Below, piece by piece: positions 2,043-49,769 of a stretch of DNA of 64,000 nt. Under the pieces are notes generated by a model. That model ran no database searches, had not been told where the DNA came from, and saw nothing but the letters and a program-made list of their open reading frames with translations. A program made the position numbers and the translations under genes. How positions within the stretch are numbered: position 1 is the first letter of the stretch; every line of letters begins with the position of its first letter. Source of the stretch: a bacterium (GTDB lineage Bacteria; Planctomycetota; Planctomycetia; Planctomycetales; Planctomycetaceae); the NCBI GenBank assembly GCA_016125225.1, contig WGME01000008.1, positions 62,001 through 126,000 on the forward strand. The letters are read 5' to 3'.

Positions 2043-3437
2043 TCAATCGTTCAAAGTCCGCTTTCGTTGCTTCGCATACAGTTCCCGGAAACTTTGGCGG
2101 GGCATCGGTGGCAGTTCGCGTTGTTTGCCCCACGGATTCAGGCCATTGTACACCAGAAATCGCGGCAGGATGGGCAACATTTTGCGGCCCAGCCAACCGG
2201 CGGTGCGATACAGCCAAGGCGTACCCAGCACGCGACCGGCCAGCGCCATGCCCATGCGCTTCGTCCACGGCAGCAATTTGCGAACCGCGATTTCCTTCCG
2301 CCAGGTGAGCAGTTGCGTGTGGAGATCGATCTTCACCGGGCAGACATCGCTGCATGAACCACACAGGCTGCAGGCAAATGGCAGCGTGCTGTAAGTGGCA
2401 GCATCGCGTGAGGGAGCGAGAATCGAACCAATCGGCCCCGGCACAGTCGTCTGATAACTGTGCCCGCCACTGCGGCGATAGACCGGGCAGGTATTCATGC
2501 ACGCGCCGCAACGGATGCAGTTGAGAGAGCGCCGAAATTCAGGGCTGCCGAGAATATCGCTGCGGCCGTTATCGACCAGCACAATGTGCATCTCGCCGCC
2601 GGCCATCGGTCCATGAAAGTGAGAGGAATACGTGGTGATCGGCTGCCCCGTCGCAGAACGCCCCAGTAATCTCAGGAAGATGCTGAGATCGGCAAGCCGC
2701 GGGATCAGCTTTTCGATCCCCATGCAGGCAATGTGCACCTTCGGCAGCGAGACTCCCAAGTCTGCGTTGCCTTCGTTGGTGCAGACGACGAAGCCACCGG
2801 TTTCGGCGATGGCAAAATTGACTCCGGTGATGCCGATGTCGGCTCCGAGAAACTGTTCCCGCAGTTTCTTGCGCGCCGCGGTCACCAGATAGGGTGGATC
2901 GGTCGCTCCCTTTTCCGTCCCCAGATGTTCATGAAAGAGTTCGCCGATCTCTTCTTTTTTGATATGGATCGCGGGCATGACGATATGGCTGGGCGGCTCA
3001 TCACGCAACTGCACGATCCATTCGCCCAGATCGGTATCGGTCACCGCGATGCCGTGCCGTTCGAGGTACGGATTGAGATGACATTCTTCCGTCAGCATCG
3101 ACTTGCTTTTGACGACCTTCTTCGCCTGATGCTGCTGAATGATGCCGAGCACGATTTCGTTGTGTTCGGCCGGGGTGCGTGCCCAGTAAACCTTGGCCCC
3201 GAGTTTGATCGCGTTGCGTTCAAATTCTTCAAGGTAGTCGCCGAGTCGCGACATGGTATGCAGCTTGATTTCCGAAGCCTTCTGCCGGAGTTGTTCCCAC
3301 TCGGGCAGGGTCGCGGCCATCTTGTCGCGTTTGGAACGGACAAACCACAACGACTGATCATGCCAGTGGGCACGGGCATCGTTGGCCACAAAATCGGCGG
3401 CATTATCCGGATGGTCTCGAACGATGGTGTCTGTCAT
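2043..3437 (-). CDS. lutB: LutB family iron-sulfur lactate utilisation protein
   Basis: This 464-residue protein combines an N-terminal LutC-like (DUF162) domain with a C-terminal pair of 4Fe-4S motifs, CIRCGACMNTCP and CSLCGSCSDVCP, as in LutB. It is expected to pass electrons in the cytoplasmic LutABC lactate dehydrogenase complex. The ATG at 3437 gives the normal family length. It follows a Uma2 gene by 73 bases and precedes lutC by 43 bases, all on the minus strand. The interposed Uma2 gene between lutA and lutB is unusual. The family call is firm; the specific 2-hydroxy-acid substrate is inferred from family membership. Confidence 0.9.
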   Translation of the reverse strand: MTDTIVRDHPDNAADFVANDARAHWHDQSLWFVRSKRDKMAATLPEWEQLRQKASEIKLHTMSRLGDYLEEFERNAIKLGAKVYWARTPAEHNEIVLGIIQQHQAKKVVKSKSMLTEECHLNPYLERHGIAVTDTDLGEWIVQLRDEPPSHIVMPAIHIKKEEIGELFHEHLGTEKGATDPPYLVTAARKKLREQFLGADIGITGVNFAIAETGGFVVCTNEGNADLGVSLPKVHIACMGIEKLIPRLADLSIFLRLLGRSATGQPITTYSSHFHGPMAGGEMHIVLVDNGRSDILGSPEFRRSLNCIRCGACMNTCPVYRRSGGHSYQTTVPGPIGSILAPSRDAATYSTLPFACSLCGSCSDVCPVKIDLHTQLLTWRKEIAVRKLLPWTKRMGMALAGRVLGTPWLYRTAGWLGRKMLPILPRFLVYNGLNPWGKQRELPPMPRQSFRELYAKQRKRTLND

Positions 3438-13093: not shown

Positions 13094-14284
13094 ATGTTTG
13101 TCAGCCAGACCCATTTGCCGCAACTGCTCGACACCTCGCACTATAGCGACGAGGGCGTGCATCAGCGGGAACGGGAAACGATGTTTCAATCCGGCTGGCA
13201 TTGTCTTGCCGCGTGGGATCAGTTTCCGAAAGAGGGCGACTACATCACCTCGAATCTGCTCGGCACTCCGTTGATTCTCTGGCGAAGGCAAGATCAGATT
13301 CGGGCGTTTCTGAATGTCTGCACGCATCGCTTCAGTATGCTGACCGATCGGCCTACCGGCTGCTTCCAGAAGAACATGAAGTGCCAGTATCACGGCTGGG
13401 AATACGATGAGACAGGGAATACCTGCCGGATTCCCGATGCCCAGAGCTTTCGCCCCTTGAAGAAAGGCGAACTGGGGCTGAAAGAATATCGCGTGGAGAT
13501 GGTGGGGCAACTGGTCTTTGTCACGCTGAATCCGCAAGCTCCACCCCTGCGCGAATATCTCGGCGAAGACTTGGCCTCGCTGTGTGAGGAACGGTTTTCG
13601 AAGCAGCACCACATCACGTACTGGTTTGATCGGGAGCAGCCCTGCAACTGGAAGATCGTTATCGAAAACCTGCTCGAATCGTATCACATTGAAAATGTAC
13701 ATCCGCGTACTTTCAAACGGTTCCCCGTTCCCGAGCACTGCACGCATACCTTTCACGACACTTACGACTACTACATTCACGACTTCAAGGACGAACCCGA
13801 CTCTGCCAACACCGAACGATTTGTCTGCCATCTGACGGGGCAACCGCTCGACCTGAAATGGCGTCACATTCTGCGATACCCCAATATCGCCGTGGGTGGA
13901 TCGGGGCCGTTCTATTACTTTCTGATCGTCTTTCCGCTGACGCCGACAACCTGCAGACTGCTGACCTACACGTTCCACTATTCGGGACCGCGCGGGCGTT
14001 TGTGGCCGTTTTTAGTCCACCGGGTTCTCAAGCGCTATGGCAAGTATCTCGGCCAACAGATCAATCAGGAAGACGCCGCGATTTACCCCGGCATTCAGAT
14101 TGGCAATACGACGCAAGAGCGGCCCCATGGGGGCGGTCTGATTTCGGCCCGCGAAGAACGCATCTTCGCCTTCCAGAAGTACATCTTGTCGCAGGTTGGC
14201 AGGCAGCCAGCTCAACAGACCGTTGCCGAACAGAATGGATGTCACTCTGAGACGGCCTGCGAGGAATCGGCATCAAACCTTTGA
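13094..14284 (+). CDS. Rieske-type ring-hydroxylating oxygenase, alpha subunit
   Basis: The 396-residue protein has a Rieske 2Fe-2S site at C76-x-H78 and C97-x2-H100, then a catalytic domain with the mononuclear iron ligands predicted at H198, H203 (ESYHIENVHP) and D327 (NQEDAA). These enzymes hydroxylate, desaturate or demethylate aromatic, sterol-like or other hydrophobic substrates using electrons from a ferredoxin or reductase. Its 3' end overlaps the radical SAM gene tail to tail by 12 bases. The proximity to terpenoid genes suggests it may oxidise a terpenoid, which is inference. The last 15 or so residues are low-complexity and look like translated intergenic repeat. Confidence 0.88.
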   Translation: MFVSQTHLPQLLDTSHYSDEGVHQRERETMFQSGWHCLAAWDQFPKEGDYITSNLLGTPLILWRRQDQIRAFLNVCTHRFSMLTDRPTGCFQKNMKCQYHGWEYDETGNTCRIPDAQSFRPLKKGELGLKEYRVEMVGQLVFVTLNPQAPPLREYLGEDLASLCEERFSKQHHITYWFDREQPCNWKIVIENLLESYHIENVHPRTFKRFPVPEHCTHTFHDTYDYYIHDFKDEPDSANTERFVCHLTGQPLDLKWRHILRYPNIAVGGSGPFYYFLIVFPLTPTTCRLLTYTFHYSGPRGRLWPFLVHRVLKRYGKYLGQQINQEDAAIYPGIQIGNTTQERPHGGGLISAREERIFAFQKYILSQVGRQPAQQTVAEQNGCHSETACEESASNL

Positions 14285-15499
14285 CAACTGTCGCTGCCGA
14301 TTCAGATCGCGATAGACGCCAAAGTCGTTGAAGAACATGCGTTTGGCCAGACGGTAGGCCCAACTGCGTTCGGGAATTTCATCGCCGGGGGCATCTTGTG
14401 ACGGGCGAGCGAGCATCGCCTGCAGTTCGGCCTGTGCCGTTTTCCGCACTGTCTGATCGCCTGCCTGATGCAGCACGACGAGTTCTTCCAACAAATCAGG
14501 TCGTTCCAGCACAATGCAGCCGCGCGTCGTTTGGGCTGCCAATTGACGGAAATCCCTTAGGAACTCTGATTGCGAAATCACCTGATCGATCGGCCGGGGA
14601 TCGTGAATCGATTCCTTCGCGAACTGCACGATCGGGCAGGGTTCAATGCCGCCCCAGGGGTTGATGTGGTGCGTCAATCCGGCAGCCGCCGGGCATAACG
14701 CCTGCCCCTCTCCATCGAAATACGCATCCACAATTCCAATCGGTTTGCGGGCTCGCATATCAACGACGAACTGCCGAATGCGGCGTTGCTGTTCGCGGGT
14801 GAGGCACAAGTCAGGATTCGGTTGCGGCCCCATCGGCCGGTAGACATGGAACCATGTGTAAAGCACCCCCATCTCGATCAGACGATCGACCCATTCCTCA
14901 CGAACGAGATCATCGATGTTGGTCTGACAGACACTGGTGCAGACGCCGGTGATCAGCTTGTGCTTCAGGCAGTTCTCGACCCCCTGCATGGTCTTCGACA
15001 AGACTGCGGGTCGCCCCCGTCGCTCATCGCTGACGATCTCGGTTCCTTCCACGCTGATCAAAGGCGTGACGTTGCCCAGCCGTCGTAATTCACGGGCCAC
15101 GTCATCGGTGATGAAATGGCCGTTGGTGAAGACCTGAAAATAACAACCGGGATGCTGGGCGAAAATCTCCAGCAGTTGCGGATGCATGAACGGCTCGCCC
15201 CCCACGATGCCAAAGAACGAGTTGCCCGCCGCTTGTGAATCGCGGATCAACCGATTCATCGCGGTGAGGTCGATGGTCTGCTGTTTCGCCGAGACATCGA
15301 CCCAACACCCCTGGCAGCGCAGATTGCAGCTGTTGATGACCGAGATGTAGAGAAACGGCGGGAAATAAACGCCCCGTTTCATCCGCCGTTTGAACCGCTG
15401 GACCGACAAGGCCCCCTTGAAACCGAAGTTATAGGCCAGCTTCCAGAGCAACCGTTTGTCGGTTTCCATCAGCAGCCGCTTGGCCATGCGCAAGTACAT
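14273..15499 (-). CDS. Radical SAM enzyme
   Basis: The 408-residue protein has the CxxxCxxC cluster motif (SCNLRCQGC, residues about 58-65), the GGEP motif, and a C-terminal region with scattered cysteines (EPCPIV, RGCIV) that may hold a further cluster as in SPASM-type enzymes. Radical SAM enzymes use a 5'-deoxyadenosyl radical for C-H activation. An ATG at 15499 is chosen; 15487 is an alternative, and further upstream the frame merely overlaps the CobW-type gene. It lies 47 bases downstream of that gene on the same strand, so the two are likely an operon divergent from the terpenoid genes. The substrate is unknown. Confidence 0.87.
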   Translation of the reverse strand: MYLRMAKRLLMETDKRLLWKLAYNFGFKGALSVQRFKRRMKRGVYFPPFLYISVINSCNLRCQGCWVDVSAKQQTIDLTAMNRLIRDSQAAGNSFFGIVGGEPFMHPQLLEIFAQHPGCYFQVFTNGHFITDDVARELRRLGNVTPLISVEGTEIVSDERRGRPAVLSKTMQGVENCLKHKLITGVCTSVCQTNIDDLVREEWVDRLIEMGVLYTWFHVYRPMGPQPNPDLCLTREQQRRIRQFVVDMRARKPIGIVDAYFDGEGQALCPAAAGLTHHINPWGGIEPCPIVQFAKESIHDPRPIDQVISQSEFLRDFRQLAAQTTRGCIVLERPDLLEELVVLHQAGDQTVRKTAQAELQAMLARPSQDAPGDEIPERSWAYRLAKRMFFNDFGVYRDLNRQRQLSKV

Positions 15500-15546
15500 T
15501 CTCGTCTCGATTGCAGGTAAACAGTGGAAAACGGGAGGCGAACCGA

Positions 15547-16659
15547 TCAGGCCGGCTGCAACCGATGTGTCGGCATCGGACGACCCGGGCGGAACTGCTG
15601 CGTCTGCTGTTCGGTGGCGGTAATTCCATGGTCCGCACAGACCCGCTGGATCGCGTTCTGCACCTGCTGGGCCAACACCAGTGGGTCGCAAGCCACACGG
15701 GCATTCACCACCAGTTCGCACTCTTTCACCTGGCTATGCGAGGGCAATGAAAGTTCCGGGGCCACAGCCGTGCTGATCAGATTCGCCACGCCGAAGAACC
15801 CTTCCCACAAACCAATGGTCTTCAGATGAGCGGCTTCAAAACCAGCGTCTGACAGGGACTGCTGCAGACTCTGCACGATCTCGAGCAGAACATCATCCAA
15901 GGTGAAGGACTGCTCCGAGTGCAAGCGCAGACTGCTGTTCAACCAGCCCAGTTCGGCTTCTCCATCGGCATAGATGTCGTAATCGATGTCGAGCACGCGG
16001 CGGCCAAAGTCGCCCTGTTGATCAAGGAATTCCAGCACGGCATCAAAGCCGTCTCCGGTTTTCGCGGAGACCGCCAGCCGTGCGGTTTGCGGGTGCTTTT
16101 CGTCCAGCAATGTATGCAGCTCATGAACTTCGGCCGGGCTCAGTTCATCGACGCGATTGATGAGAATGAGGTCGGCTTCTTCGAGTTGCTTTTCCAGAAT
16201 GTAGGCCGCTTTGGGGGAAAAGCCGCCACCGGGTTCGTTGCGGAGAATGCGGCCACCCTGGCTCGGCTTCAACAACACCGCATACGGGGCGACAGAGAAC
16301 TGGGCGTCGTACAACTGTTTGAGCGGCTGCAACACCGTCGCCACGAGATCGGTGCAACTCCCCACCGGTTCCGCGAGAATCACATCCGGGGCCTTGCTCT
16401 GATCGAGTTGCTGAATCGAGCCGATCAGATCGTTAAAGCGGCAACAGAAACAGGCCCCGGCGACTTCACCGACATCGAAGCCCTGGGATCGCAAGGAATT
16501 CGTATCGACGAGATCGCTGGCCTGATCGTTGGTGACGATGCCGACCGATAATCCCTGACTCGTATAATGCCGGGCCAGTCGCGCGAGAGTGGTGGTTTTC
16601 CCGGCTCCCAGAAAACCACCCACCATGATAAAGCGAATTGTTCGCGCAGGTTTCGTCAT
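15547..16659 (-). CDS. CobW/COG0523-type (G3E family) GTP-binding protein
   Basis: The 370-residue protein has Walker A GGFLGAGKTT (residues 14-23), a C-x-C-C metal motif (C70, C72, C73), and NRVD as the base-recognition motif. CobW-family GTPases are metallochaperones that load Zn, Co or Fe into client enzymes. It is transcribed divergently from the DegT gene across 102 bases, upstream of the radical SAM gene. A metal-loading role for a neighbour is a reasonable inference because the neighbours include a Rieske and two Fe-S proteins. The start ATG at 16659 gives MTKPARTIRFIMVGG; longer in-frame starts add sequence that overlaps the divergent promoter region. Confidence 0.88.
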   Translation of the reverse strand: MTKPARTIRFIMVGGFLGAGKTTTLARLARHYTSQGLSVGIVTNDQASDLVDTNSLRSQGFDVGEVAGACFCCRFNDLIGSIQQLDQSKAPDVILAEPVGSCTDLVATVLQPLKQLYDAQFSVAPYAVLLKPSQGGRILRNEPGGGFSPKAAYILEKQLEEADLILINRVDELSPAEVHELHTLLDEKHPQTARLAVSAKTGDGFDAVLEFLDQQGDFGRRVLDIDYDIYADGEAELGWLNSSLRLHSEQSFTLDDVLLEIVQSLQQSLSDAGFEAAHLKTIGLWEGFFGVANLISTAVAPELSLPSHSQVKECELVVNARVACDPLVLAQQVQNAIQRVCADHGITATEQQTQQFRPGRPMPTHRLQPA

Positions 16660-16761
16660 TGCGTGGCCTTGTTTCCCGATGGACTCTGGCAGCAAAATGG
16701 TCTCTGCATGGTAAACGCTTTCTGCGCACACGAGCAATCCCCCGAGAACGATTCCCGAAAA

Positions 16762-17964
16762 ATGTCCACGCTTGAGGAACGTCCCGCATGTCTCGGGGGC
16801 ACGCCGACCCGGCAAAGTGCCCCACCAACTTGGCCCATTGCCGATGCAGCCGTTCAAGAGAGTCTGCTCAAGTGTCTGCACGCGGGCGACTGGGGCCGTT
16901 ATGCTGGCCCCTTCTGCCAGCAACTTGTCCATGAATTAGCCACCCGGCATGCCGTCGAACATGTCTTCCTGTGCAGCAGTGGCACGGCCGCCATCGAATT
17001 GGCTTTGCGGGGGCTGAACATTTCGACCGGCGATGAGGTTCTGCTGGCCGGTTACGACTTCAAAGGCAACTTTCTGGATGTGCTCACCGTCGGAGCGCGG
17101 CCCATTCTTATCGATGTGAACCCGACCACCGGGCAACTGGATGTCACGCAGATTGCCGAAGCTTGTACGGACCGGACACGGGCCGTGATTGCCTCGCATC
17201 TGCACGGCGGTCAGGTCTGGCTGCCAAAACTTCGCCAGGCCATCGATGACCGGGGAATTGCCATCATCGAAGATGCCTGCCAGATGCCGTTGGCTCCGCT
17301 GTCGTCTCATCTTGCAGGCACGGCGGGCGATGTGGGCGTCATCAGCTTCGGCGGCAGCAAACTGCTCACGGCGGGTCGCGGTGGAGCCATAGTTACCCAT
17401 CGGGCGGATGTGGCCGCTCGAATTCGTCGTTATAACGAACGGGGCAATACGGCCTATCCCCTCTCGGAACTTCAGGCGGCGGTCCTGTTACCGCAATTGG
17501 CGCAGCTTGATGAACGCCGGATAGAACGTCGTCAGCGCGTGTCGGAATTGGCCGCCGCCCTGGCTGATGGCACGGCGGTGGAGTTGATGAATCCACCAGA
17601 TCAAGTTGCAGGAACGGACTACTACAAAGTCTTATTGCGTTATCATGCGGAAGCCTGTGACGGGTTATCACGTGACCAGTTTGCCCAGGCGTTACAGGCG
17701 GAGGGGATGGCGATTTATCCGGGGTTCCGTGGGCTGCATCTCATTCATGCCCGCAGCCGATTTCGCACGATCAACAGCTTGCTCCAGGCCACGCGTGCCG
17801 ATGCCGAGTGGTTGGTGCTGCATCATCCGGTGCTACTGGCCGGATCAGCCGCCGTTCAGGAGGTCGCACGGGCGATCACGAAAATTCAGCGGTTTGCAGC
17901 GGAGATTCGCGAGGCCAACTTGCCGGACCGATCGCCATTCCTGTTGGAAGACGACCTGCCATGA
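16762..17964 (+). CDS. DegT/DnrJ/EryC1/StrS-type PLP-dependent aminotransferase
   Basis: The 400-residue protein shows the fold-type I order of this family: SSGTAAIELALRG, then IIEDACQMPLA, then FGGSKLLTAGRGG with the PLP lysine predicted at K200. Relatives transfer amino groups to nucleotide sugars, or act on other carbonyls in natural-product pathways. The ATG at 16762 is chosen; ATG 16708 is possible. It is the first gene of the plus-strand chain and its stop overlaps the next start by four bases. There are no sugar-modifying genes beside it, so its substrate may be a terpenoid-pathway intermediate; that is inference. Confidence 0.85.
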   Translation: MSTLEERPACLGGTPTRQSAPPTWPIADAAVQESLLKCLHAGDWGRYAGPFCQQLVHELATRHAVEHVFLCSSGTAAIELALRGLNISTGDEVLLAGYDFKGNFLDVLTVGARPILIDVNPTTGQLDVTQIAEACTDRTRAVIASHLHGGQVWLPKLRQAIDDRGIAIIEDACQMPLAPLSSHLAGTAGDVGVISFGGSKLLTAGRGGAIVTHRADVAARIRRYNERGNTAYPLSELQAAVLLPQLAQLDERRIERRQRVSELAAALADGTAVELMNPPDQVAGTDYYKVLLRYHAEACDGLSRDQFAQALQAEGMAIYPGFRGLHLIHARSRFRTINSLLQATRADAEWLVLHHPVLLAGSAAVQEVARAITKIQRFAAEIREANLPDRSPFLLEDDLP

Positions 17965-18446
17965 TGGAAGACACATCGACTCCTGCGGCCCTCGTCCAGC
18001 GTTGTCAGGACATCTGGGCCCATGCCTGGATGGTGCGAACATTCGTCAAACACAGTTCCGAAGTCGAGGACTTCCCCGAACTGATGCAAATCGCCCGCAT
18101 GGTGTTCGATGCCAGCCGGTCGCTGGAATCCCGCATCGATGATCCCCCCGCCTACTTTCGGCAAATGAAGAAGAAGCTGCGAAAGCTGCGAGCCGCCGCC
18201 GAGCAATTCGCGCATGATGCCCCATTGGCGTCGGATCATACGAACTTTCGTCAGGCGGTAATTTCCATGAACGCCTGTGTCGGTGGACTGGAACGCCTGA
18301 CCCAGGAATTCGATTCCATTTCGGGGCAGGTTCTGCAGAACCCTCAGGAATCTGGCCACGAGCTTGACGAGCCTGCATCAGACCACCACGATCAAGCGGA
18401 TGAAACTCTTCCCAACTCGACTGACCCGCCCCTGAGCCCCGCGTGA
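17961..18446 (+). CDS. Conserved-looking small protein of unknown function in terpenoid-type cluster
   Basis: This 161-residue protein is not recognised. It is mostly alpha-helical in appearance with a basic stretch (MKKKLRKLRAA) in the middle and an acidic, probably disordered C-terminal tail. There is no signal peptide or membrane segment. The ATG at 17961 overlaps the stop of the DegT gene (ATGA), and its own stop overlaps the ATG of the GcvH-like gene (TGATG), so it is tightly coupled in translation to both. It could be an accessory or scaffold protein for the cluster; nothing in the sequence gives a function. Confidence 0.75.
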   Translation: MMEDTSTPAALVQRCQDIWAHAWMVRTFVKHSSEVEDFPELMQIARMVFDASRSLESRIDDPPAYFRQMKKKLRKLRAAAEQFAHDAPLASDHTNFRQAVISMNACVGGLERLTQEFDSISGQVLQNPQESGHELDEPASDHHDQADETLPNSTDPPLSPA

Positions 18447-18901
18447 TGCCAGCCGACGATCTTGTCTTCCCTATGGGAAAATATGAGGCCCGCATGCCGG
18501 TCGATCGGCAGTACACGCGGTCTCATTTCTGGCTATCGCCCCTGGCAACTGGGTATCGCGTCGGTTTCACGGCTTATGCCGTGCGGTTGCTGCAGGACGT
18601 ATACTTCCTCGATTGGACGATTGATGCCCAGACGGCGGTGAAGGAGAAAGAGCAGATTGGCGAGATCGAAAGTTCCAAAGCGGTCTCGGCGATGTATGCT
18701 CCGGCCGAGGGGCTGATCCGTGAGTTCAACCCGGCGCTATATAACGATCCGTCGCTCATCAATGCGGACAACTATGGCAGCGGTTGGTTGTACGAACTGG
18801 AAACGGAATCGCCGTTGCTTTCGGCTCAGGAATACTATGCCCACCTGGAAGCGACCTGGGAAACCACACAACGTTTGCTGAAGAGCCAATACAACGAGTA
18901 A
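18446..18901 (+). CDS. Glycine cleavage H-protein-like lipoyl carrier
   Basis: The 151-residue protein has the H-protein core: TGYRVGFTAYAVRLLQDVYF, then GEIESSKAVSAMYAP with the predicted lipoyl lysine K78, and NADNYGSGWLYELE. H-proteins carry lipoate for glycine decarboxylation, and some relatives act as lipoyl carriers in other pathways. No glycine cleavage P, T or L genes are in the window; instead it is embedded among terpenoid genes, so it may serve a different redox or carrier role. It starts at ATG 18446, overlapping the previous stop. A 60-base gap precedes the ferredoxin gene. The fold assignment is firm; use in this cluster is inference. Confidence 0.84.
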   Translation: MPADDLVFPMGKYEARMPVDRQYTRSHFWLSPLATGYRVGFTAYAVRLLQDVYFLDWTIDAQTAVKEKEQIGEIESSKAVSAMYAPAEGLIREFNPALYNDPSLINADNYGSGWLYELETESPLLSAQEYYAHLEATWETTQRLLKSQYNE

Positions 18902-18961: not shown

Positions 18962-20020
18962 ATGTCGAAACCGCAAAAACTGACCGTCGTGATCTCGCAG
19001 GCACCGGGCAAAAATCCTCACAAGCGGCAATTGGAAGAAGATCTCGCGACCCAGTTGATGCTGGCGGGAACGGCTGAAGTCTCGTTGATTCCGCAAGTGT
19101 ACGACTTGCCGGAGGACCATCACGCCTGGCTGTGGCTCAAGTCGATTCCGGGAGACATGGTGGTGCTCGGATGGCAATATCCCCGAGCCTTGCGGTGGAC
19201 GTTGGACCGCAACGGCGTCCGGGGTCGTGAAGGTCTCACATTATTGCGCAGTGAAGAGGACGATGAATCGGCCGAGTTAACGGAAACACAAGCCACCGGC
19301 ATCGGCAGCGTGAATGTTCCGCCGCGCCGGATTTTCGTGCTCGATTTGAAGCTGCACACGCAGCCGCAGCCTTATCTTGAAGAGATCGAACGCATCGCAC
19401 GGGAAGCAACCGTGCCCCTGGTTTCGCTGGGTGGATTCTCGCTAGGACCCAGCACACCGAATACCGTGTCGCTCGGGAACAATTCGAGTCCCGCACCGAC
19501 ACTTAGGCCAGCAACGAGTCCACTCGATTTTCGGCTGACAGCCGGCAGTGATGCCCCGCCGGTCGCCGTCGAAGCTCGTCGCCGCTGGTACCCGGTGATC
19601 GACTACAGCCGCTGCACAAATTGCATGGAATGCCTCGATTTCTGCCTGTTCGGTGTCTACGGCGTCGATGGCATGGACCGCATTCTGGTGGAAGAGCAGG
19701 ACCAATGCAAAAAGGGTTGCCCGGCCTGCAGCCGTGTCTGTCCGGCCAATGCGATCATCTTCCCCGAGCACAAAACGCCTGCCATCGCGGGAGCACCGAC
19801 AGAAGACGCCGGGGATTTCAAAATCGATCTTTCGAAGTTGTTCGGTGCCCCCTCGGCCCTGGAAATTGCGGCCCAGGAACGAGACGTCGAACTGGTCGCC
19901 GATGGCCGCACCGCCGTGGGCATGACGGTGGGAATCCCGAAACGGCAAGCGGACAAACCGTCGGGTCAGCGCGATGATCTCGATGACCTGATGGATGGCC
20001 TTGATGCTCTGGACTTGTGA
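18962..20020 (+). CDS. 4Fe-4S ferredoxin-domain protein
   Basis: The 352-residue protein has an N-terminal domain of about 200 residues without a recognised motif, followed by a two-cluster ferredoxin segment: C218-x2-C221-x2-C224-x3-C228 and C249-x3-C253-x2-C256-x3-C260. A charged tail rich in Asp and Leu ends the protein. It could deliver electrons to a cluster enzyme such as the Rieske oxygenase or radical SAM enzyme. Its stop overlaps the next start (TGATG at 20020), so it is translationally coupled with the cyclase. The N-terminal domain may hold the partner specificity; its family is unknown to me. Confidence 0.82.
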
Positions 20021-21933
20021 TGAGCACCGTGAACAACACCATTGACGCTCGGGCCGTCACCGTGAGTGAGTTGACGGAAACTGAGATTCAGCAGGCCTAC
20101 GATCAGGTCGCGGAGCGGTTGTTGTTGGAGGCCACTCCGCAGGGTCATTGGGAAGGTGAGCTATCGACCTCGGCTCTGTCAACGGCCACCGCCGTGATGA
20201 CATTGTCCTTGCTCGCTCAGCAGGAGCCGACTCGAGCGCCAGCGCTGGAGTCCTCGATCGAAAAGGGCCTGCAGTGGCTGATCGATCATCAGAATGAGGA
20301 CGGCGGTTGGGGCGATACGGTCCTCAGCATCAGCAACATTTCCACCACCATGCTGGCCCACAGTGTGTTGTGGCTGCAGCGGGATGACCCTCGTTTTACC
20401 GCGGCGATCGAAGCCGCTGCCGCCGCCATCACTCAGGCTGGTGGAGTGGCGGCGGTTCATCGCCGGTATGGCAAAGACCGCACGTTCTCGGCACCGATTC
20501 TGACGCAATGTGCCTTGGCCGGGTTGGTCGACTGGCGGGAAGTGGCCGCGTTGCCCTTTGAACTGGCCTGGCTGCCGCACAGTTTCTACAAGTTCGTCCG
20601 GTTGCCGGTGGTGAGCTATGCCTTACCGGCCTTGATTGCGATTGGACAAATCCGCCACGTCCAGCGACCTTCATTCCATCCGTTGCTGCGTGGTTTGCGT
20701 CATCTCGCACGGAAACCGACCCTCCGCAAGCTCACAGAGATTCAACCCGGCAGTGGCGGATTTCTGGAAGCCACGCCGCTCACCAGTTTTGTCTGCATGA
20801 GCCTGATCGCCCTCGGGGAAAGTCAACATCCTGTGGTGCAGAAAGGGATCGAATTCCTGCTGAGCTCGATGCGGGACAATGGCGGCTGGCCGATTGATAC
20901 CAATCTGGCCACTTGGGTCACTACGCTCGCGGTGAATGGTTTAGACCGCGAGACACTCCCCGCGACACAACGTCAGGCCATTGCCCGGTGGTTGCTGGGC
21001 CAGCAATGGCGCGAGACACATCCGTATACGCAAGCGGCCCCGGGGGGCTGGGCCTGGACCGACCTGCCCGGCGGTGTGCCCGATGCCGATGATACCCCCG
21101 GCGCGATTCTGGCGGTGCTGAATTTGACCGCTGAGACCGATCTTGCAGCCGACGGACTTGCGGCTGCATCGTCGGGCATCGAATGGTTGCTCGATCTGCA
21201 AAACCGTGACGGCGGTTGGCCAACCTTCTGCCGGGGTTGGGGAGCATTGCCGTTCGATCGCAGTTCCGCCGATATCACGGCCCATGTGTTGCGGGCCATG
21301 CACATCTGGCAGAACCGCATGGCATCGGCGGGTCATTCCATCGCCGATAAGATGCCACGGATCAACCGGGCCATGCAGAAAGGCTTTGCCTACCTCGAGC
21401 GAATGCAGCGGACCGATGGCAGTTGGTTGCCCTTGTGGTTCGGCAATCAGCATGGTCGCGATGACGAAAACCCCGTTTACGGCACCACACGGGTGTTGAT
21501 GGCCTACCGCGAATGCCAACGGTTGACCGTTCCATCGGCTCAACGCGGTTTGCAGTGGCTGACCGATCAGCAGAATGCCGATGGTGGCTGGGGCGGCTCA
21601 CGCGGGCTGACATCCACCGTAGAAGAGACGGCCCTGGCGGTGGATGCTCTGGAAATGGGTGACGAAACTCTGCAACCGGCACAAAACGGCGGACTCCGCT
21701 GGCTGATCGCACAGGTGAACACCGGTTCGATTGCAGACCCCAGTCCAATTGGGTTCTACTTTGCCAAGCTGTGGTACTTTGAACGACTCTATCCGCTGGT
21801 GTTTACCGCCTCGGCGTTGCGACGCGCCCTGAAACGTGTTCGACAGACATCAACGGAACCCGCGTTCCCGGATATCACCGCCCGCTCACACGCATGGACT
21901 TCACAGAAAGTGACCTCGGATGCACTCGACTGA
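20020..21933 (+). CDS. Squalene-hopene cyclase-like terpene cyclase
   Basis: This 637-residue protein has the alpha/alpha-barrel repeats of the squalene-hopene cyclase family: several QW-type motifs (for example [24 protein letters not shown]) and a class II catalytic motif DADD at 355-358 (family DxDD, at 374-377 in the Alicyclobacillus enzyme). Class II cyclases protonate a terminal alkene or epoxide to start ring closure. No squalene synthase gene is in the window, and a polyprenyl synthase follows directly, so the substrate could be a linear polyprenyl compound and not squalene. The length fits squalene cyclases; a hopene synthase is the conservative alternative. Confidence 0.85.
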
Positions 21934-23806
21934 CGCCCAGCCCGCGCCGGCAGACACCGATACCCGGCACGAGGTCTCCGAACCCACGATGGCCGACACT
22001 CAACCCACGCCCACGGAAAAGCCGGGCCGTCGCAGCACCTCGCATCTCAAGCTCGTCCCGCCGACTCTGCCGGAACGCGAGCACCTCAAGCAGGCAGCGG
22101 AACAGTACGCCAAAATGCTGGATAAGAGCCGCCCCTTCACCCGCAACGAGTTGGAGAAGCACGGCCGCCAGTTGCTGCAACAGTTGCATCAGCCGGAAGG
22201 TTATCTCGGCTTTGCGATGGTGATGATCGGGAACTTCTTCTGGAAGCGGCAGTTCCTGGCGTTGCCGTTCAACCGTCGCATGCTGTTGCTGCCCCACTGC
22301 CTGAAGCATGCCGATGGTTGCCCCGCCGACTACGATGAATTCGGTCTCGATTGCGAACGCTGCGGGGCCTGCTCGATTGCCGACTACAAAGTGCGGGCCG
22401 AGCAACTCGGCTACAAAGTGCTGGTGGCGGAAGGTTCGCCGGTTGTATTGAAGATCATCGTCTCGGGTCATATTGATGGCATTCTCGGCGTGGCTTGTTT
22501 GAACGTGCTGGAAAAAGCGATCGATAAGGTGCTGCTGGCCGGCGTGCCTTCGTATGCCATCCCTCTGCATTCGGGCGACTGCAAGAACACCACGCTGGAT
22601 GAATCGTGGGTGTGGGAATGCCTCGATAAGTATGAACCGCTGGAATCCGCCGAGACGGCCGGGTATGTGCCGCTGATGCGGGCGGCGAACCGCATTTTCG
22701 ATCAACAGTTCGACGAGGTTGTACCACCACTGCGTGAGGGACGGACTGATGCCGACCCGTATTCCCCGCTGCAATTCACCGATACAGTGGCTCGGCAATG
22801 GTTATCGCACGGCGGCAAACGGCTGCGGCCTTTCGTCACACTCGCGGCCTATGAAGCCTTGACCCGTGATCCCGAACAACCTCCGAACCTGCTGAATGAT
22901 GACGTCGAATTCCCGCTCGCGGTGCGACGTGTGGCCGCTGCCATGGAAGCCTTCCACAAGGCTTCGCTAGTGCACGACGACATCCAGGACAATGACGCCT
23001 ATCGTTACGGTCAACCGACGATTCATCAACGCTACGATGTCGGCACGGCGATCAACATCGGCGACCATCTGATCGGCATGGGCTATCGTTTGGTCAGCCA
23101 GACGCGGAAAGAAATCGACCCGGCGATTGTCGCGGATATTTCCGATCGACTCGCATTGGCTCATCTTAAGTTGTGCGAGGGGCAAGGGGCCGAGATGCGG
23201 TGGAACGGCGACCATGTCACCCAGTTGACGCCGCTGGAAGCCATGAAGATTTATGCCTTGAAGACCTCGCCCGCCTTCGAAGCGGCGCTCTACTCGGGCC
23301 TGCGACTGGCCGGTCCGACCGATCAGTATGACACGATGATTTCGCAGTTCAGTCGGCATCTCGGCGTGGGCTTTCAGATTTTGAATGACCTGCAGGATTG
23401 GGAAGAAGGCGAAGCCAACAAGCAGATCGCCGGCCGCGATGCGGAAAGCTGCAAGCCGACATTGTTGCTCGCCTTGGCATTGGAAGCCGCTGCTCCGCAT
23501 CAGCGGACTGAGTTCGAAGCCATGCTCCATGATCAGAAGCTGGTCAACGGGTCGCGGATTTCGGCCTTGCGTCATTGGTACGTGGAACTCGGCGTCTTCG
23601 AGAAGGCGGAAGCACTCGCGGAGAAATGCCGCAGCCGCGCTGAAGCTCTCGCCGATGAAACCGAACCGATGGCTCTGCGGCAGTTCCTGTATTACATCAT
23701 CGATTCGGTATTATCGCGGGATGCCGCGACGCCTCCGGCCGTGGTCACCTTGCAGGGATTGGGATCGTCTCTGCTGCCGGTGATGGCCCATCCGGGTCGG
23801 GCGTAA
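21920..23806 (+). CDS. DUF116-polyprenyl diphosphate synthase fusion
   Basis: The 628-residue protein has a basic, Pro-rich N-terminus, then a DUF116-type region with cysteines C127, C134, C145, C148 and C151 and the run [19 protein letters not shown], then a trans-isoprenyl diphosphate synthase from about residue 250. The synthase has a first Asp-rich motif DDIQD (353-357) and a second, altered motif NDLQD (489-493). Such enzymes condense isopentenyl diphosphate into prenyl chains; the chain length cannot be read from the sequence. The gene overlaps the cyclase by 14 bases and its stop overlaps the next start (TAATG). The cysteine pattern suggests metal or Fe-S binding in the fused domain. 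Confidence 0.85.
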
Positions 23807-24783
23807 TGTCGTCCTCGTTGCTGGAACTCGGCGAGCGCATTCAACGGGGCCTGCAACAAAGCTCTGCAGAATTCCGCAGCCGGCATCGTGATTTTCTCTT
23901 ATCGCGACAACTCCCGACCGGGGGCTTTGCGGGTCGCGATGTGGATCTGCAGGGGAACCCGGTCTTTGATGACGGCGTGCAGGCCGATCTGTATTACACG
24001 GCCTTCGCTGTTCGCGGACTGGCGGCCTTGGAGGGCTTCGATACAGACACCGCCGAGTTAGTTGGCCTATGGCTGCAGCCCTTCGCCAGTCGGTTACTAT
24101 CGGTGATCGATGTCGTGAGCTGGCTGTACACCGCCGCGATGGTTCAGGCCGCATGTGGGAAAGATTTGCTGGCCGATGTCGCCGCCGACTGGCCAACAAT
24201 TCTGGCCGGGAAGCTGGAACAACTCCGCTGTGAAGACGGAGGCTATGCCAAATCGACGGCCAGTGTTTCCGGCAGCACCTATCATTCGTACCTGGTGGTG
24301 CTGTGCTATCAACTGATCGGCCAGACCTTGCCCGATGTGGATCGACTGGTGCAGTTCATCATCGAGCGGCAGCGGGAGGACGGGGGGTTTGTCGAGATGG
24401 CAGCCATGCGTCGCAGTGGCACCAACCCCACCGCCGCCGCCATCGGCATTCTCAACATCTACAACGCCATGACATCCCCGATCCGCACCCGAGCCGTGAA
24501 CTTTTTCGAACAGGTCCGGGGAGATGATGGCGGGTTCCAGGCCAATACCCGCATTCCCTTTTCCGATGCCTTGTCGACATTCACGGGTTACTTGACCTGC
24601 CTCGACATTGGTCATCCGGAATTGCTCCCCACGCGCAAGCTGGCCCGATATCTGAAAGAGCTGGAACTCCCGACCGGGGGGTTTCTTGCCGCAGGATGGG
24701 ATCGCACGCCCGATGTGGAATACACGTTCTATGCCTTGGGGACACAAGGGCTGCTTAACGCTCAGACATCTGCGAATTCGTGA
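23806..24783 (+). CDS. Prenyltransferase beta-subunit/squalene-cyclase-like repeat protein
   Basis: The 325-residue protein is built of alpha/alpha-barrel repeats with GG(F/Y) motifs (LPTGGFAG, CEDGGYAK, REDGGFVE, GDDGGFQA, LPTGGFLA), as in protein prenyltransferase beta subunits and terpene cyclases. I do not find the Asp/Cys/His zinc ligands of eukaryotic farnesyltransferase, the protein has no alpha partner nearby, and there is no DxDD motif, so it is probably neither a true protein prenyltransferase nor a class II cyclase. It begins at ATG 23806, overlapping the preceding stop, and completes the chain. It may process or bind a polyprenyl intermediate; this is inference. Confidence 0.8.
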   Translation: MSSSLLELGERIQRGLQQSSAEFRSRHRDFLLSRQLPTGGFAGRDVDLQGNPVFDDGVQADLYYTAFAVRGLAALEGFDTDTAELVGLWLQPFASRLLSVIDVVSWLYTAAMVQAACGKDLLADVAADWPTILAGKLEQLRCEDGGYAKSTASVSGSTYHSYLVVLCYQLIGQTLPDVDRLVQFIIERQREDGGFVEMAAMRRSGTNPTAAAIGILNIYNAMTSPIRTRAVNFFEQVRGDDGGFQANTRIPFSDALSTFTGYLTCLDIGHPELLPTRKLARYLKELELPTGGFLAAGWDRTPDVEYTFYALGTQGLLNAQTSANS

Positions 24784-24792
24784 TGTCTGTGG

Positions 24793-27759
24793 CTATTCGC
24801 CGCGCGGCGTCATCCGGGGCAGCCGTGGCCATTTCGAGAAGAGTCCCGATCCCGACGGGCTTTCCCCTTTGGTCTGCTGAATGACACCGGTAGAGGTCGC
24901 ATCTTCCCCGCCGTTGCGATGCGGATCGTGCGGGATCACCTGCAAGTCATCAAGCAACACTTCGCCCAGTCCGGTAAGCGAAAACGACACCGTGAATTCG
25001 CCACTCGCGGGAACAATCCGCAGCAATTCAAACCGCGTCCATTGTTCGGCATCATAAACCCGGAGTCCGGCCGAACGTCCCAGCAGACTGTCATAAATCA
25101 GGACGCCATCACGGCTCGACTTCACTGGTTCCGTCAGTTTTACCCAACCGCTGATGTGCAGGATCTGACCGGCCCGTACCGGCATGGGGGGCGTTGTCAC
25201 CGTGACCGGCGATTCCTCTAACAAGAGGACCGATGTCACACCGGGATGCGGACGGCATTCCAGCCGCAGGGCATAGCCTTTCTTGCGTCCTGTCGGGAAC
25301 AAGGCCGCCGAGGTCTGCAGAATCTCCGGAGCGCGATGCACGTTCTGCCACTTCTCGGCAGTCATCGTGGCGAAGTCTTCGAACTCACCAGAGGGGAGCA
25401 GGTTTCGCGAATTCAACTGTCGACTGGTACCGAACGTTGAGATTAACCGCCAATGATCGGGAAGTGTTTGATAGCACAAGGTGTAAGGCGAACTGACGGG
25501 GGAAGAAAGCGAATCGACGGCGGCATCCCAATGGCTGCGTTGCAGAATACGCAACTGCTGACAGGCCTGTCCGGCGAGGTCTTCCGCCGAGCGAAAGTCC
25601 CCTTGGCTGAGGGCCGATGTTGCCTGATCGACCCGCAATTTGGCTCCGCCGAGCAGTTGAGGGGCATCAGGCTGAGCCGGGGCTATTGGTTGCAATTGCT
25701 GATCGACCAAGCCCACGCGATCGAGCTTGAGATTCGCCAGTTGCACCATGTTCTTCGCCGCGATCGCTTGAATGCCCGTGATGCGGTCTCGCATTCGTTG
25801 AATTTTTGAGAGTTCCGAAGTCACCCAGATGAATCCGACCTCGTCCAGACGGGGCAGTTCGATCCGCTTCCCACCGGCTGCCGGTGAAGACTGCAGGCGA
25901 TGGAGATGCGTGGGAGTAAACTCGACCACTTCGGCGGTTTGCTCGCAACCCGGCACAATCAGGGTGACATCCGAGACCGCACATTGGGCGGGAACCCATT
26001 GCGACTCACCTTCTAGCCACAATGGCAAGACCAGCAAACCATGCTCGGTGCGCAGCACATAGGCTGACAATTCCTGATCGCGTCCGGCCAGTTGTCGAGA
26101 CTGTTGAGACCGGCTCCGGAGTTGAGCATCGCGTTCCACAACATTGGGCAGGTTCAAGCCGAACGGCAAATTCCGGGCAAAATTGGTGGACGTAGCCCCC
26201 TTAACCTGACACGTGATCGCTTCAAAGTTGCCCGCATGGGCCAGCCAGGGTTCGAGCAGTTGCAATTCCAGATTCACGCGTTTGATCGCCTGGCGACGTT
26301 CTTCCGCGAAGGGCGAATCTTCTGCCAGAGAGGTCGATGTCCAGAAACCCAGGCCCCGCATCCCCGCGACAATGGCCGCATAGGCCTGCAATCGGATCTG
26401 TTCCGGTTCCAGCAATGGGGTCGCACCGCTGGCTGTTAACGTCGATTGAACCTGTGGCGAGGGCTCGACCTGCAGCCAAGTCCAGCAGAAAGCCCCCGGC
26501 CGTGCCTGCGACTTCCGATCGAGCAACCAGCGGCGATAGTCATCGAGTGTCAGCGTGGTTTGTAAGGGATGGCGGCTGATGCCGAGCAGTTCGATATCGC
26601 GAGAAAAGAGACGTTCATCACTAGCCACATCTAACGCCAAAGGACGGACACGGCGGCGGTCCGCGAACTCCAGTTGTTCGATCCAATGCGTGTAGGCTTC
26701 CCGCTGGTCGCCATGCACGCGCGTGCCCAGCATCCAGAACAGCACCGGATCAACATCGGGAGTGAAGGGTACCAAACCCGCTGAACTCGACTCCAGGGGT
26801 TGTCCCTGATCATCGGCCGGACGCGGCGGCGTGGCCGTGACCCATAACCCTTTTGACCACAGCTTTTGAATGAGTGCCGTGTCATCGGCCTGATCGATGA
26901 AGACCGTATTGAATCCGAGGTCGCGGAGTAGTTCGGGAGGTTCGCCGTGGTACCGCACCATCCGCGGAAAAAACGGACGGCCATCGACCAGCAACCGATC
27001 CAGTCGAAATTCCACCTGTGGCACATTACTCAAAGCAGGAGTCTCAAGTGTCGCCGGTCGTTCAATTTCGATCGGCACAATCGGCTTCATTTCCAGATCA
27101 TCGATGGCGATCTGGGTACTCCCCGCCGGCGCTCGACAGGCGAGATAAAGTCGATCGACGTACAACTGCCCGAAGTTCGCGATGTCGGGATATTTCGCAC
27201 GCAATCGTACGAGATGCCCCCGAACTTCCCGGTCGCTGGTCCGGCATGTCAGTTCGCTCCAGCGGTCGGTCTCCTGTAAGACACTCCCCGAGATGATGAT
27301 TTCCACCGGTTGCTTGGTGTCGGGATCGATCACCCCCGGAACAATGATCCCAATCCCCAGAATCCATCCTGGACTGGGCGAGCGAACCCATACCGAGGCC
27401 GTCAATTCATCGAGAACACGACTGGCCGGAACGGAATAAACCAGGCGAGTTGGCAGTCCCGCCTGCGACGACTCCATGCGGATCACTTCGCCTCCGCCGT
27501 TCCGCCCGACCACATCCGAGCGCTCGCTGCGAATGGACTGCTGAGCGGGATCGGAGAGGTCCACCACCCAGGCGGGTTCAAACCGTTCGAAGTTGTCACG
27601 GAGTGGCTCGGCCGCTGGCATGGGGACAGCGAAAGCGAACAAGACCGCACAGAGCCCAGCGGACCGCGCAAAGAAAGAAACCAACGATCGAAACGACCGC
27701 GGTTGGCCCTGCACAGACGACGGTAATCGCGGCATCATCCTTGAAGCCGGTAATCCCAT
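24793..27759 (-). CDS. Large secreted protein, possible carbohydrate-active enzyme-like domains
   Basis: The product of about 988 residues starts with a signal-peptide-like segment ending near PMPAAEP. An N-terminal domain resembles a jelly-roll (LVYSVPASRVLDELTASVWVR region), the central 400 residues include a barrel-like part (RYHGEPPELLRDLGFNTVFID), and the C-terminus again looks like a carbohydrate-binding jelly-roll (LLEESPVTVTTPP region). I see no catalytic signature and assign no enzyme family. ATG 27759 is chosen because GGTGAG lies upstream; a GTG at 27789 and ATG at 27738 are alternatives. It converges with the terpenoid chain across nine bases. Planctomycetes encode many such giant secreted proteins. 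Confidence 0.7.
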   Translation of the reverse strand: MGLPASRMMPRLPSSVQGQPRSFRSLVSFFARSAGLCAVLFAFAVPMPAAEPLRDNFERFEPAWVVDLSDPAQQSIRSERSDVVGRNGGGEVIRMESSQAGLPTRLVYSVPASRVLDELTASVWVRSPSPGWILGIGIIVPGVIDPDTKQPVEIIISGSVLQETDRWSELTCRTSDREVRGHLVRLRAKYPDIANFGQLYVDRLYLACRAPAGSTQIAIDDLEMKPIVPIEIERPATLETPALSNVPQVEFRLDRLLVDGRPFFPRMVRYHGEPPELLRDLGFNTVFIDQADDTALIQKLWSKGLWVTATPPRPADDQGQPLESSSAGLVPFTPDVDPVLFWMLGTRVHGDQREAYTHWIEQLEFADRRRVRPLALDVASDERLFSRDIELLGISRHPLQTTLTLDDYRRWLLDRKSQARPGAFCWTWLQVEPSPQVQSTLTASGATPLLEPEQIRLQAYAAIVAGMRGLGFWTSTSLAEDSPFAEERRQAIKRVNLELQLLEPWLAHAGNFEAITCQVKGATSTNFARNLPFGLNLPNVVERDAQLRSRSQQSRQLAGRDQELSAYVLRTEHGLLVLPLWLEGESQWVPAQCAVSDVTLIVPGCEQTAEVVEFTPTHLHRLQSSPAAGGKRIELPRLDEVGFIWVTSELSKIQRMRDRITGIQAIAAKNMVQLANLKLDRVGLVDQQLQPIAPAQPDAPQLLGGAKLRVDQATSALSQGDFRSAEDLAGQACQQLRILQRSHWDAAVDSLSSPVSSPYTLCYQTLPDHWRLISTFGTSRQLNSRNLLPSGEFEDFATMTAEKWQNVHRAPEILQTSAALFPTGRKKGYALRLECRPHPGVTSVLLLEESPVTVTTPPMPVRAGQILHISGWVKLTEPVKSSRDGVLIYDSLLGRSAGLRVYDAEQWTRFELLRIVPASGEFTVSFSLTGLGEVLLDDLQVIPHDPHRNGGEDATSTGVIQQTKGESPSGSGLFSKWPRLPRMTPRGE

Positions 27760-28084
27760 CAAACTCACCGAAATCGATTCGGTGGACACGTTCTGCTAGA
27801 AAACCACGAGGCGATATCGATAAGGGTCAAGCCATCCCCCCACGATTTGTGTGGTGAAAGCTCAACGTCTCAGCGACTCCTACAATTTGCTGTAACTTCT
27901 CATTCATACAGGATTTGACGCATTTGAGCTAGACCGGTTGTGGAGTTTTTACCACAGTCACCCCGCAACGACTGGTCAAAAATTCACAGCGTAAGTAACT
28001 ACCCACAAAAGATTTAGGAACAATCCTTGCGAAGCGATGCGGTTCGGCACAGAATCTGATCTGCGAACGGCAGAGGAATGCCAT
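27760..28084. other. Divergent intergenic region, no gene seen
   Basis: This stretch separates the large secreted protein (minus) from the small coiled-coil protein (plus). It must carry both promoters. It is more AT-rich than its surroundings around 27890-28020. I see no strong palindrome or RNA gene. Confidence 0.4.
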
Positions 28085-49628: not shown

Positions 49629-49667
49629 TAAGGTTGAGAGTCGATGGTTGAGGGTTGAGAGTTCAGG

Positions 49668-49705
49668 GCGGAAGGCAAAACCAATGTGTTTACCTTCCGC
49701 TTTTT
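49668..49705 (+). terminator. Intrinsic terminator after peroxidase gene
   Basis: An 8-bp stem (49668-49675 with 49693-49700) extends by three A-T pairs inside, and is followed at once by five T residues. Confidence 0.78.
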
Positions 49706-49769
49706 GCTTTCCGCATTCTGTTCTTGAATGCGACTCGCGAACGCATTTCGTCTCCGATAAAATGACCGC

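What the first reader, a model, noticed from the sequence alone, without database searches (positions are those of the whole stretch)
18446..18901. Lipoyl carrier protein without glycine cleavage partners
A GcvH-like protein with a lipoyl-lysine motif (ESSKAVS, K78) is embedded in the terpenoid chain with no P, T or L genes nearby. In sulfur-oxidising systems H-like proteins have been recruited as lipoyl carriers, so this may be another recruited carrier.
Basis: partly seen in the sequence, partly recalled or inferred. Interest (0 to 1): 0.62.

Follow-up and report, generated by a model that had tools for sequence, protein, structure and literature searches.

The report
Lipoyl carrier in a terpenoid operon
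A second H-protein-like lipoyl carrier in this planctomycete is not part of glycine cleavage but travels with a widespread set of iron-sulfur, radical-SAM and terpenoid-making genes, which points to a new job for the cofactor lipoate.

Summary
In detail: 18446-18901 (+) encodes a 151-aa H-protein-like protein with the lipoyl-lysine motif ESSKA, K78. The refuter fails: the genome has a canonical gcvH followed by gcvPA, gcvPB and a lipoate ligase. The window copy belongs to a separate family, split from canonical GcvH at 100/99 support, found in 44 of 59 genomes. Its lysine is kept in 28 of 28 group-A and 47 of 48 group-B proteins.

It is part of a conserved module: lipoyl carrier, CobW GTPase, small four-cysteine protein, dicluster ferredoxin, radical SAM enzyme, DUF116-polyprenyl synthase fusion, prenyltransferase-like toroid, squalene-hopene cyclase. 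All eight lie on one contig in 28 of 80 loci in three phyla. The parts co-occur across genomes even when scattered. A cysteine desulfurase adjoins in 26 of 80 loci. The four-cysteine protein shares its cysteine spacing with the HdrA N-terminal domain.

Best reading: a dedicated lipoyl carrier of sulfur or electrons for a terpenoid pathway, working like LbpA but not LbpA. Chemistry and product are inferred, not shown.

The parts
18446..18901 (+). GcvH-like lipoyl carrier (GcvH2, group A), 151 aa, lipoyl-lysine K78 in ESSKA
   Evidence: Pfam PF01597 1.5e-22; K78 and no Cys; tree
18962..20020 (+). 352-aa protein: N-terminal domain related to the small four-Cys protein of group B (Cys lost) plus a two-[4Fe-4S] ferredoxin domain
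   Evidence: Fer4 hits; Cys motifs [11 protein letters not shown] and [12 protein letters not shown]; hhalign N-terminus vs small protein, E 3.9e-5, probability 70
20017..21933 (+). Squalene-hopene-cyclase-like protein, DADD motif at 356
   Evidence: Pfam SQHop_cyclase_C 2.1e-39; motif
21920..23806 (+). DUF116 (Cys-rich, predicted Fe-S/flavodoxin-like) fused to a polyprenyl diphosphate synthase with HDDIQD motif
   Evidence: Pfam DUF116 3.1e-37, polyprenyl_synt 3.1e-43; motif; model
23806..24783 (+). Single alpha/alpha-toroid prenyltransferase/cyclase-like protein (PreT)
   Evidence: Pfam Prenyltrans 1.3e-14
14273..15721 (-). Radical SAM protein, CNLRCQGC motif; conserved part starts near residue 70, so the real start is probably near 15500
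   Evidence: Pfam 8.7e-14; closest NCBIfam models are mostly SPASM-type; motif; 60-86% identity in most carrier-bearing relatives
15547..16932 (-). CobW-type GTPase with CxCC motif; conserved part starts near residue 95
   Evidence: Pfam cobW 8.9e-21; motifs; profile
16567..17964 (+). DegT/DnrJ aminotransferase next to the carrier; shared with 3 of 27 group-A loci
   Evidence: Pfam 1.4e-52; synteny
17808..18446 (+). 212-aa ORF of unknown family, stop overlapping the carrier's start; shared with 4 of 27 group-A loci; real start probably near 17955
   Evidence: no Pfam or NCBIfam hit; synteny
13094..14284 (+). Rieske oxygenase, neighbour only; membership in the module not supported by synteny
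   Evidence: Pfam Rieske and Ring_hydroxyl_A; printed for none of the 32 loci nor the 80

Best explanation
GcvH2 is a dedicated lipoyl carrier of a conserved terpenoid-linked redox module. Steps: (1) general machinery (LipA and a lipoate ligase, both in the genome) lipoylates K78 [inferred from the conserved lysine]. (2) The lipoyl arm takes up sulfane sulfur from a cysteine desulfurase, or cycles as dithiol/disulfide [inferred; desulfurase adjacency shown in group B only]. (3) It passes sulfur or electrons to the neighbouring Fe-S proteins: the HdrA-N-like domain, the dicluster ferredoxin and DUF116 [inferred from linkage]. (4) These serve the radical SAM enzyme, which modifies an isoprenoid made by the DUF116-fused polyprenyl synthase and cyclised by the SHC-like and toroid proteins [inferred]. 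CobW would load or maintain a metal centre [inferred]. It works like LbpA in the sHdr system but for biosynthesis. Shown: the separate clade, the conserved lysine, the conserved gene set and co-occurrence. I put about 0.85 on 'dedicated carrier of this module, not glycine cleavage', and within that split the chemistry mainly between sulfur carrier (about 0.4) and dithiol electron relay (about 0.35).
For: Canonical gcvH elsewhere with gcvPA/gcvPB/ligase. Tree of 93 H proteins: canonical vs the rest 100/99, group A 96/92, group B 97/96. Lysine kept in 28 of 28 group A and 47 of 48 group B, the one miss truncated. Co-occurrence over 59 genomes (both / carrier only / partner only / neither): ferredoxin 43/1/1/14, DUF116 44/0/2/13, radical SAM 43/1/2/13, SHC 44/0/2/13, CobW 42/2/1/14. 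A genome of the window's own genus, 99% complete (G001), lacks all six yet keeps canonical GcvH. Group-B operon in 3 phyla, all eight families in 28 of 80 loci. Cysteine desulfurase in 26 of 80, lipoate ligase in 8 of 80. Four-Cys spacing C-x-C-31-C-23-C like HdrA C-x-C-32-C-24-C. LipA present.
Against: G045, 99% complete in one contig, has ferredoxin, DUF116, radical SAM, SHC and CobW versions but no second H protein was detected. 32 of the 80 group-B loci show no carrier within reach; many contigs are short, but the rest of those genomes was not searched. In the window lineage the small domain has lost its cysteines, and no stand-alone four-Cys protein was found in 56 of 59 genomes. No cysteine desulfurase was found in the window or in the 27 group-A loci. 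The HdrA similarity by profile is weak (E 0.0039 for one pair, probability 8.6; 1 of 200 column shuffles scored as high). No lipoylation, substrate or product is known.
Confidence: 0.55

Rival explanations
1. It is a spare GcvH paralogue that still serves glycine cleavage, placed by chance next to terpenoid genes.
For: It keeps the H-protein fold and lysine motif; best solved relatives are glycine-cleavage H proteins.
Against: Canonical GcvH is followed by GcvPA in 20 of 20 canonical loci examined; separate clade; lost together with SHC, DUF116, ferredoxin, rSAM and CobW; NCBIfam gcvH cut-offs not reached. GcvP was not searched for in the carrier loci themselves.
Confidence: 0.05
2. The carrier is a pure electron relay: its dithiol/disulfide couples the ferredoxin to an NAD(P)H-linked lipoamide dehydrogenase to power the radical SAM enzyme; no sulfur is transferred.
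For: Tight pairing with a dicluster ferredoxin (same stretch in 21 of 27 group-A loci; group-B loci were found through the ferredoxin, so there the pairing is by construction). Radical SAM enzymes need low-potential electrons (established knowledge).
Against: Does not explain the cysteine desulfurase in 26 of 80 loci, although Fe-S assembly could.
Confidence: 0.3
3. The gene set is an Fe-S/metal-centre assembly or repair unit: desulfurase, CobW and the carrier mature the radical SAM/DUF116 enzymes, and the carrier holds sulfur only for cluster building.
For: Cysteine desulfurase, CobW with CxCC, several Cys-rich proteins in one operon.
Against: General Fe-S assembly is not normally lipoyl-dependent (recalled); desulfurase absent from group-A neighbourhoods.
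Confidence: 0.12
4. The carrier holds an acyl or one-carbon (aminomethyl) group for terpenoid tailoring, e.g. with the DegT aminotransferase beside it.
For: DegT neighbour in the window and 3 of 27 group-A loci and two DegT-like ORFs beside the G045 terpenoid genes.
Against: DegT was not detected in the 80 group-B loci and no acyltransferase or GcvT/GcvP-like partner was noticed.
Confidence: 0.08

Closest known systems
LbpA lipoate-binding protein of the sHdr sulfur-oxidation system (PMC6067878, abstract and passages read)
   Same: GcvH-derived single-domain lipoyl protein with conserved Lys, encoded with Hdr-type Fe-S proteins and, in some loci, near an LplA-type ligase; canonical GcvH also present.
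   Different: No two conserved cysteines; no HdrB, HdrC or full HdrA seen in the cluster; partners are terpenoid synthases, DUF116, CobW and a SPASM-like radical SAM enzyme.
Canonical GcvH
   Same: Fold family and lipoyl-lysine site.
   Different: Below gcvH equivalog cut-offs, separate clade, own N-terminal (MGxxxA) and C-terminal (WxxTQ) signatures in group A, no seen GcvP/GcvT linkage.
DUF116 (COG1852) proteins (PMC5898192, section 13 read)
   Same: Fusion of DUF116 to polyprenyl synthetase already noted there for Pirellula staleyi Psta_0175, with an electron-transfer role proposed.
   Different: The link to a lipoyl carrier, radical SAM, CobW, SHC and HdrA-N-like protein is not mentioned in that section.
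Hopanoid gene clusters (SHC, HpnH radical SAM)
   Same: An SHC-like protein with DxDD motif beside a radical SAM enzyme.
   Different: The radical SAM protein scores 33.6 bits for HpnH against a cut-off of 225; polyprenyl synthase, DUF116 and carrier are not Hpn genes (recalled).

Membership tests
Glycine cleavage H protein (GcvH) | H-protein domain with lipoyl lysine | tested here: met
   Pfam 80.2 bits; K78
Glycine cleavage H protein (GcvH) | Scores above curated gcvH model cut-offs | tested here: not met
   89.8 vs 117 and 78.4 vs 115.85
Glycine cleavage H protein (GcvH) | Groups with gcvP-linked GcvH | tested here: not met
   Tree split 100/99; GcvPA beside 20 of 20 canonical copies
Glycine cleavage H protein (GcvH) | Accepts aminomethyl from GcvP | not testable with these tools
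   needs enzymes
LbpA (sHdr) | Strictly conserved lysine | tested here: met
   28/28 group A, 47/48 group B
LbpA (sHdr) | Two strictly conserved cysteines, N- and C-terminal (PMC6067878) | tested here: not met
   No Cys in the window protein; best Cys column in 21 of 47 group-B rows
LbpA (sHdr) | Encoded with hdrC1B1A/hdrC2B2 genes | tested here: not met
   No HdrB/HdrC-type family in the scanned window ORFs, nor noticed among gene families recurring in 5 or more of 80 loci (unlabelled ones judged by eye); only an HdrA-N-like small protein
LbpA (sHdr) | Lipoylated by its own linked ligase | tested here: inconclusive
   Ligase beside 8 of 80 group-B loci; own-genome ligase does not co-vary
HdrA N-terminal domain (small four-Cys protein) | C-x-C ... 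C ... ACxP cysteine pattern | tested here: met
   53 of 53 vs 15 of 15 with near-equal spacing; a tight form of the pattern in 38 of 1159 ORFs, all of this family or its ferredoxin fusions
HdrA N-terminal domain (small four-Cys protein) | Significant profile similarity | tested here: inconclusive
   hhalign score 23.1, above 6 of 7 panel families (the seventh, the ferredoxin set, scored 50.8 and may hold fused copies); 1 of 200 shuffles as high
HdrA N-terminal domain (small four-Cys protein) | Structural match to HdrA | tested here: inconclusive
   Confident model (pLDDT 89) is Rossmann/flavodoxin-like; HdrA not among the rows listed
Hopanoid HpnH | HpnH model score | tested here: not met
   33.6 bits vs 225.05
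Squalene-hopene cyclase | DxDD catalytic motif | tested here: met
   DADD at 356
Squalene-hopene cyclase | Curated equivalog score | tested here: not met
   TIGR01507 115.8 vs 431.1

The most novel reading that the evidence does not exclude
Lipoate has a further metabolic realm: in Planctomycetota, Verrucomicrobiota and Acidobacteriota a GcvH-derived lipoyl protein carries persulfide sulfur from a cysteine desulfurase through Hdr-type Fe-S proteins to a radical SAM enzyme that makes a sulfur-bearing or otherwise radical-modified cyclic terpenoid lipid.
Probability: 0.22. Interest if true: 0.92.

Novelty: new variant of a known kind. Interest (0 to 1): 0.72.

Why it matters
Known lipoate roles are 2-oxoacid dehydrogenases, glycine cleavage and sHdr sulfur oxidation (PMC10332631, passages read). 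A lipoyl carrier tied to a polyprenyl synthase, a squalene-hopene-type cyclase and a radical SAM enzyme in three phyla would open a new role and a probably unknown lipid. It gives DUF116, a domain of unknown function, a testable partner set, and the dispersed but co-retained genes make knock-outs directly interpretable.

Tried and rejected
Glycine-cleavage role: rejected. Membership in LbpA: rejected on the missing conserved cysteines and unseen hdr genes. Dedicated ligase in the window organism: the C2 ligase is present in carrier-less G001, G015 and G026 and undetected in many carrier-bearing genomes (31 of 59 have a match), so it does not track the carrier. Sequence searches of the small four-Cys protein in the PDB and Pfam gave only low-complexity or chance-level hits; an NCBIfam HdrA model touched 4 of 53 members at best E 0.024. 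Fold searches: the small protein and DUF116 both give only common Rossmann/flavodoxin-like matches; HdrA is not among the rows listed for the small protein, and for DUF116 one of 50 rows is a chain of an Elp-Hdr complex over residues 11-139 at Z 7.0 (rmsd 3.6, 105 aligned), tied with unrelated folds (that this chain is HdrA is my reading of its length). DUF116 vs HdrA by profile: nothing (E 0.19). Rieske oxygenase as a module member: not supported. The Antarctic metagenome paper (PMC8692599, passages read) reports terpene clusters but not this gene set in those passages. Several ORF clusters that looked conserved read as antisense or out-of-frame shadows of the real genes and were dropped by eye.

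Full report
Observation. The ORF at 18446-18901 (+) is real. It matches Pfam GCV_H at 80.2 bits but stays below the curated NCBIfam gcvH cut-offs. The closest solved structures are glycine-cleavage H proteins.

The stated refuter. The genome (6.35 Mb, completeness 100) has exactly two GCV_H matches. The other, on contig C4, is followed by gcvPA, gcvPB and a lipoate ligase. In 20 canonical loci examined from this and other genomes GcvPA adjoins GcvH in 20 of 20, GcvPB is seen in 18 and a gcv-type ligase in 14 (which also examined two loci of G045 chosen for other genes). So glycine cleavage has its own H protein. Lipoyl synthase is present, as are two lipoate-ligase-type genes and a biotin-ligase-like one.

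A separate protein family. A search of 59 genomes with the window protein found a dedicated copy in 44: 41 of group A (48-74% identity besides the window's own; G019 is a partial match and G041 has an in-frame stop) and 3 of group B (32-33%). The other matches, including one in each of the remaining 15 genomes, were read as canonical (group B and G055 also by gene context). In a tree of 93 H proteins (28 A, 45 B, 20 canonical; L094 truncated, L074 and L138 near-copies, and the unnamed group-B loci L056, L059 and L060 left out) each group is one side of a branch and the canonical group is cut off at 100/99 (the tool warns that the long branches to groups B and C could attract). The lysine is kept in 28 of 28 group-A proteins and 47 of 48 group-B proteins, the exception being truncated.

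The company it keeps. One search examined 32 loci: 27 group A, 3 group B, 2 canonical. In the 27 group-A loci the ferredoxin protein is on the same stretch in 21, the SHC-like protein in 13, DUF116-polyprenyl synthase in 12, radical SAM in 5, CobW in 3 and PreT in 3; some stretches end at contig ends. In group B the arrangement is compact: carrier, CobW, small four-Cys protein, ferredoxin, radical SAM, DUF116-polyprenyl synthase, PreT, SHC. Of these 80 the ferredoxin is in 80 (by construction), small protein 75, radical SAM 66, CobW 52, DUF116-synthase 51, carrier 48, PreT 43, SHC 34; all eight in 28: 15 Planctomycetota, 9 Acidobacteriota, 4 Verrucomicrobiota. Many contigs are truncated.

Co-occurrence. 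In the same 59 genomes, with carrier presence against partner presence (both / carrier only / partner only / neither): ferredoxin 43/1/1/14; DUF116 44/0/2/13; radical SAM 43/1/2/13; SHC 44/0/2/13; CobW 42/2/1/14. Fisher values of 1e-10 to 1e-11 are not corrected for relatedness, but absence is scattered: G001 in the window's own genus, three other genera of its family (G015, G026, G029), two genomes of family f4 whose relative G039 has the set, and all seven sampled genomes of family f2. The genes need not be neighbours: in G034 the carrier-ferredoxin pair, SHC, DUF116 and the rSAM-CobW pair lie at four distant places. Results against: G045 has divergent versions of the partners but no second H protein found; G029 has a weak DUF116 hit only; G014 has radical SAM and an SHC fragment only; G028 lacks a detected ferredoxin; G041 lacks a detected radical SAM; G012 and G016 (under 80% complete) lack a detected CobW.

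Sulfur and Hdr signs. A cysteine desulfurase (IscS/NifS/DndA type, three examples typed) lies in 26 of the 80 group-B loci, beside either the carrier or the SHC in nearly all, and an LplA-type lipoate ligase in 8, all Acidobacteriota (phyla). Neither occurs within the window; the 27 group-A loci have no desulfurase and one ligase hit about 10 kb away, in L037. The small four-Cys protein has four invariant cysteines whose spacing, C-x-C-31-C-23-C in 45 of 53, is nearly that of the HdrA N-terminal domain, C-x-C-32-C-24-C in 15 of 15 HdrA proteins taken from planctomycete genomes; those 15 were picked by a CxCG motif among 20 fetched loci, so their first two cysteines are by construction. Both share ACxP followed by an N-x-R motif. 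The profile match is weak (hhalign 23.1, E 0.0039 for one pair, probability 8.6; 1 of 200 shuffles as high). In group A, the window included, this domain appears fused to the ferredoxin (hhalign E 3.9e-5) and has lost its cysteines, and no stand-alone copy was found except in the three group-B genomes. DUF116 was previously proposed to act in electron transfer, found beside sulfite/nitrite reductase genes in methanogens, and its fusion to polyprenyl synthetase was noted in Pirellula staleyi (PMC5898192, section 13 read).

How it most likely works. Shown: a conserved, lysine-bearing, non-gcv H-protein family tied by synteny and co-occurrence to a terpenoid and Fe-S gene set. Inferred: lipoylation by general machinery; loading of the arm with sulfur from the desulfurase or cycling as a dithiol; exchange with the Fe-S proteins; use by the radical SAM enzyme on an isoprenoid made and cyclised by the synthase, toroid and SHC-like protein. 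The SHC-like protein keeps DxDD and the synthase keeps its first aspartate-rich motif, so both are probably active.

Comparison. It works like LbpA, the lipoyl carrier of sHdr sulfur oxidation (PMC6067878, abstract and passages), but is not LbpA: the two conserved cysteines are absent and no HdrB or HdrC was seen. In the library searched, no paper holds DUF116 with GcvH, GcvH with squalene, polyprenyl and radical SAM, glycine cleavage system H with squalene-hopene cyclase and operon, or lipoyl with heterodisulfide reductase, terpen and cysteine desulfurase. This does not cover subscription literature or preprints.

Verdict. Observation confirmed; interpretation supported and extended. A new variant of a known kind (recruited lipoyl carrier), with a pathway context that may be categorically new if the chemistry is borne out.

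Noticed in passing
window 17808-18446: 212-aa ORF without any Pfam or NCBIfam hit, translationally coupled to the carrier and shared with four group-A relatives.
   Followed up: partly
L161, L168, L169 (G045): A complete genome with divergent ferredoxin, DUF116-synthase, radical SAM, SHC and CobW and two DegT-like ORFs, but no second H protein detected.
   Followed up: partly
G010, G031, G033, G039, G053, G045: A second radical SAM subtype, about 37-40% identical, is the only match in these genomes instead of the usual 60-86% identical one.
   Followed up: no
window 24793-27789 (-): 998-aa protein next to the cluster with no Pfam family.
   Followed up: no
window 47484-50906: Animal-type haem peroxidase (E 5e-132) directly before chorismate synthase.
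   Followed up: no
window 2043-3437 (-): LUD domain plus 4Fe-4S dicluster protein, LutB-like (the name LutB is recalled).
   Followed up: no
window 21920-23806; L080, L102 and L092 desulfurases: The polyprenyl synthase and the adjacent desulfurases also match encapsulin-cargo models NF041169 and NF041166 far below cut-off; encapsulin genes were not searched for.
   Followed up: no
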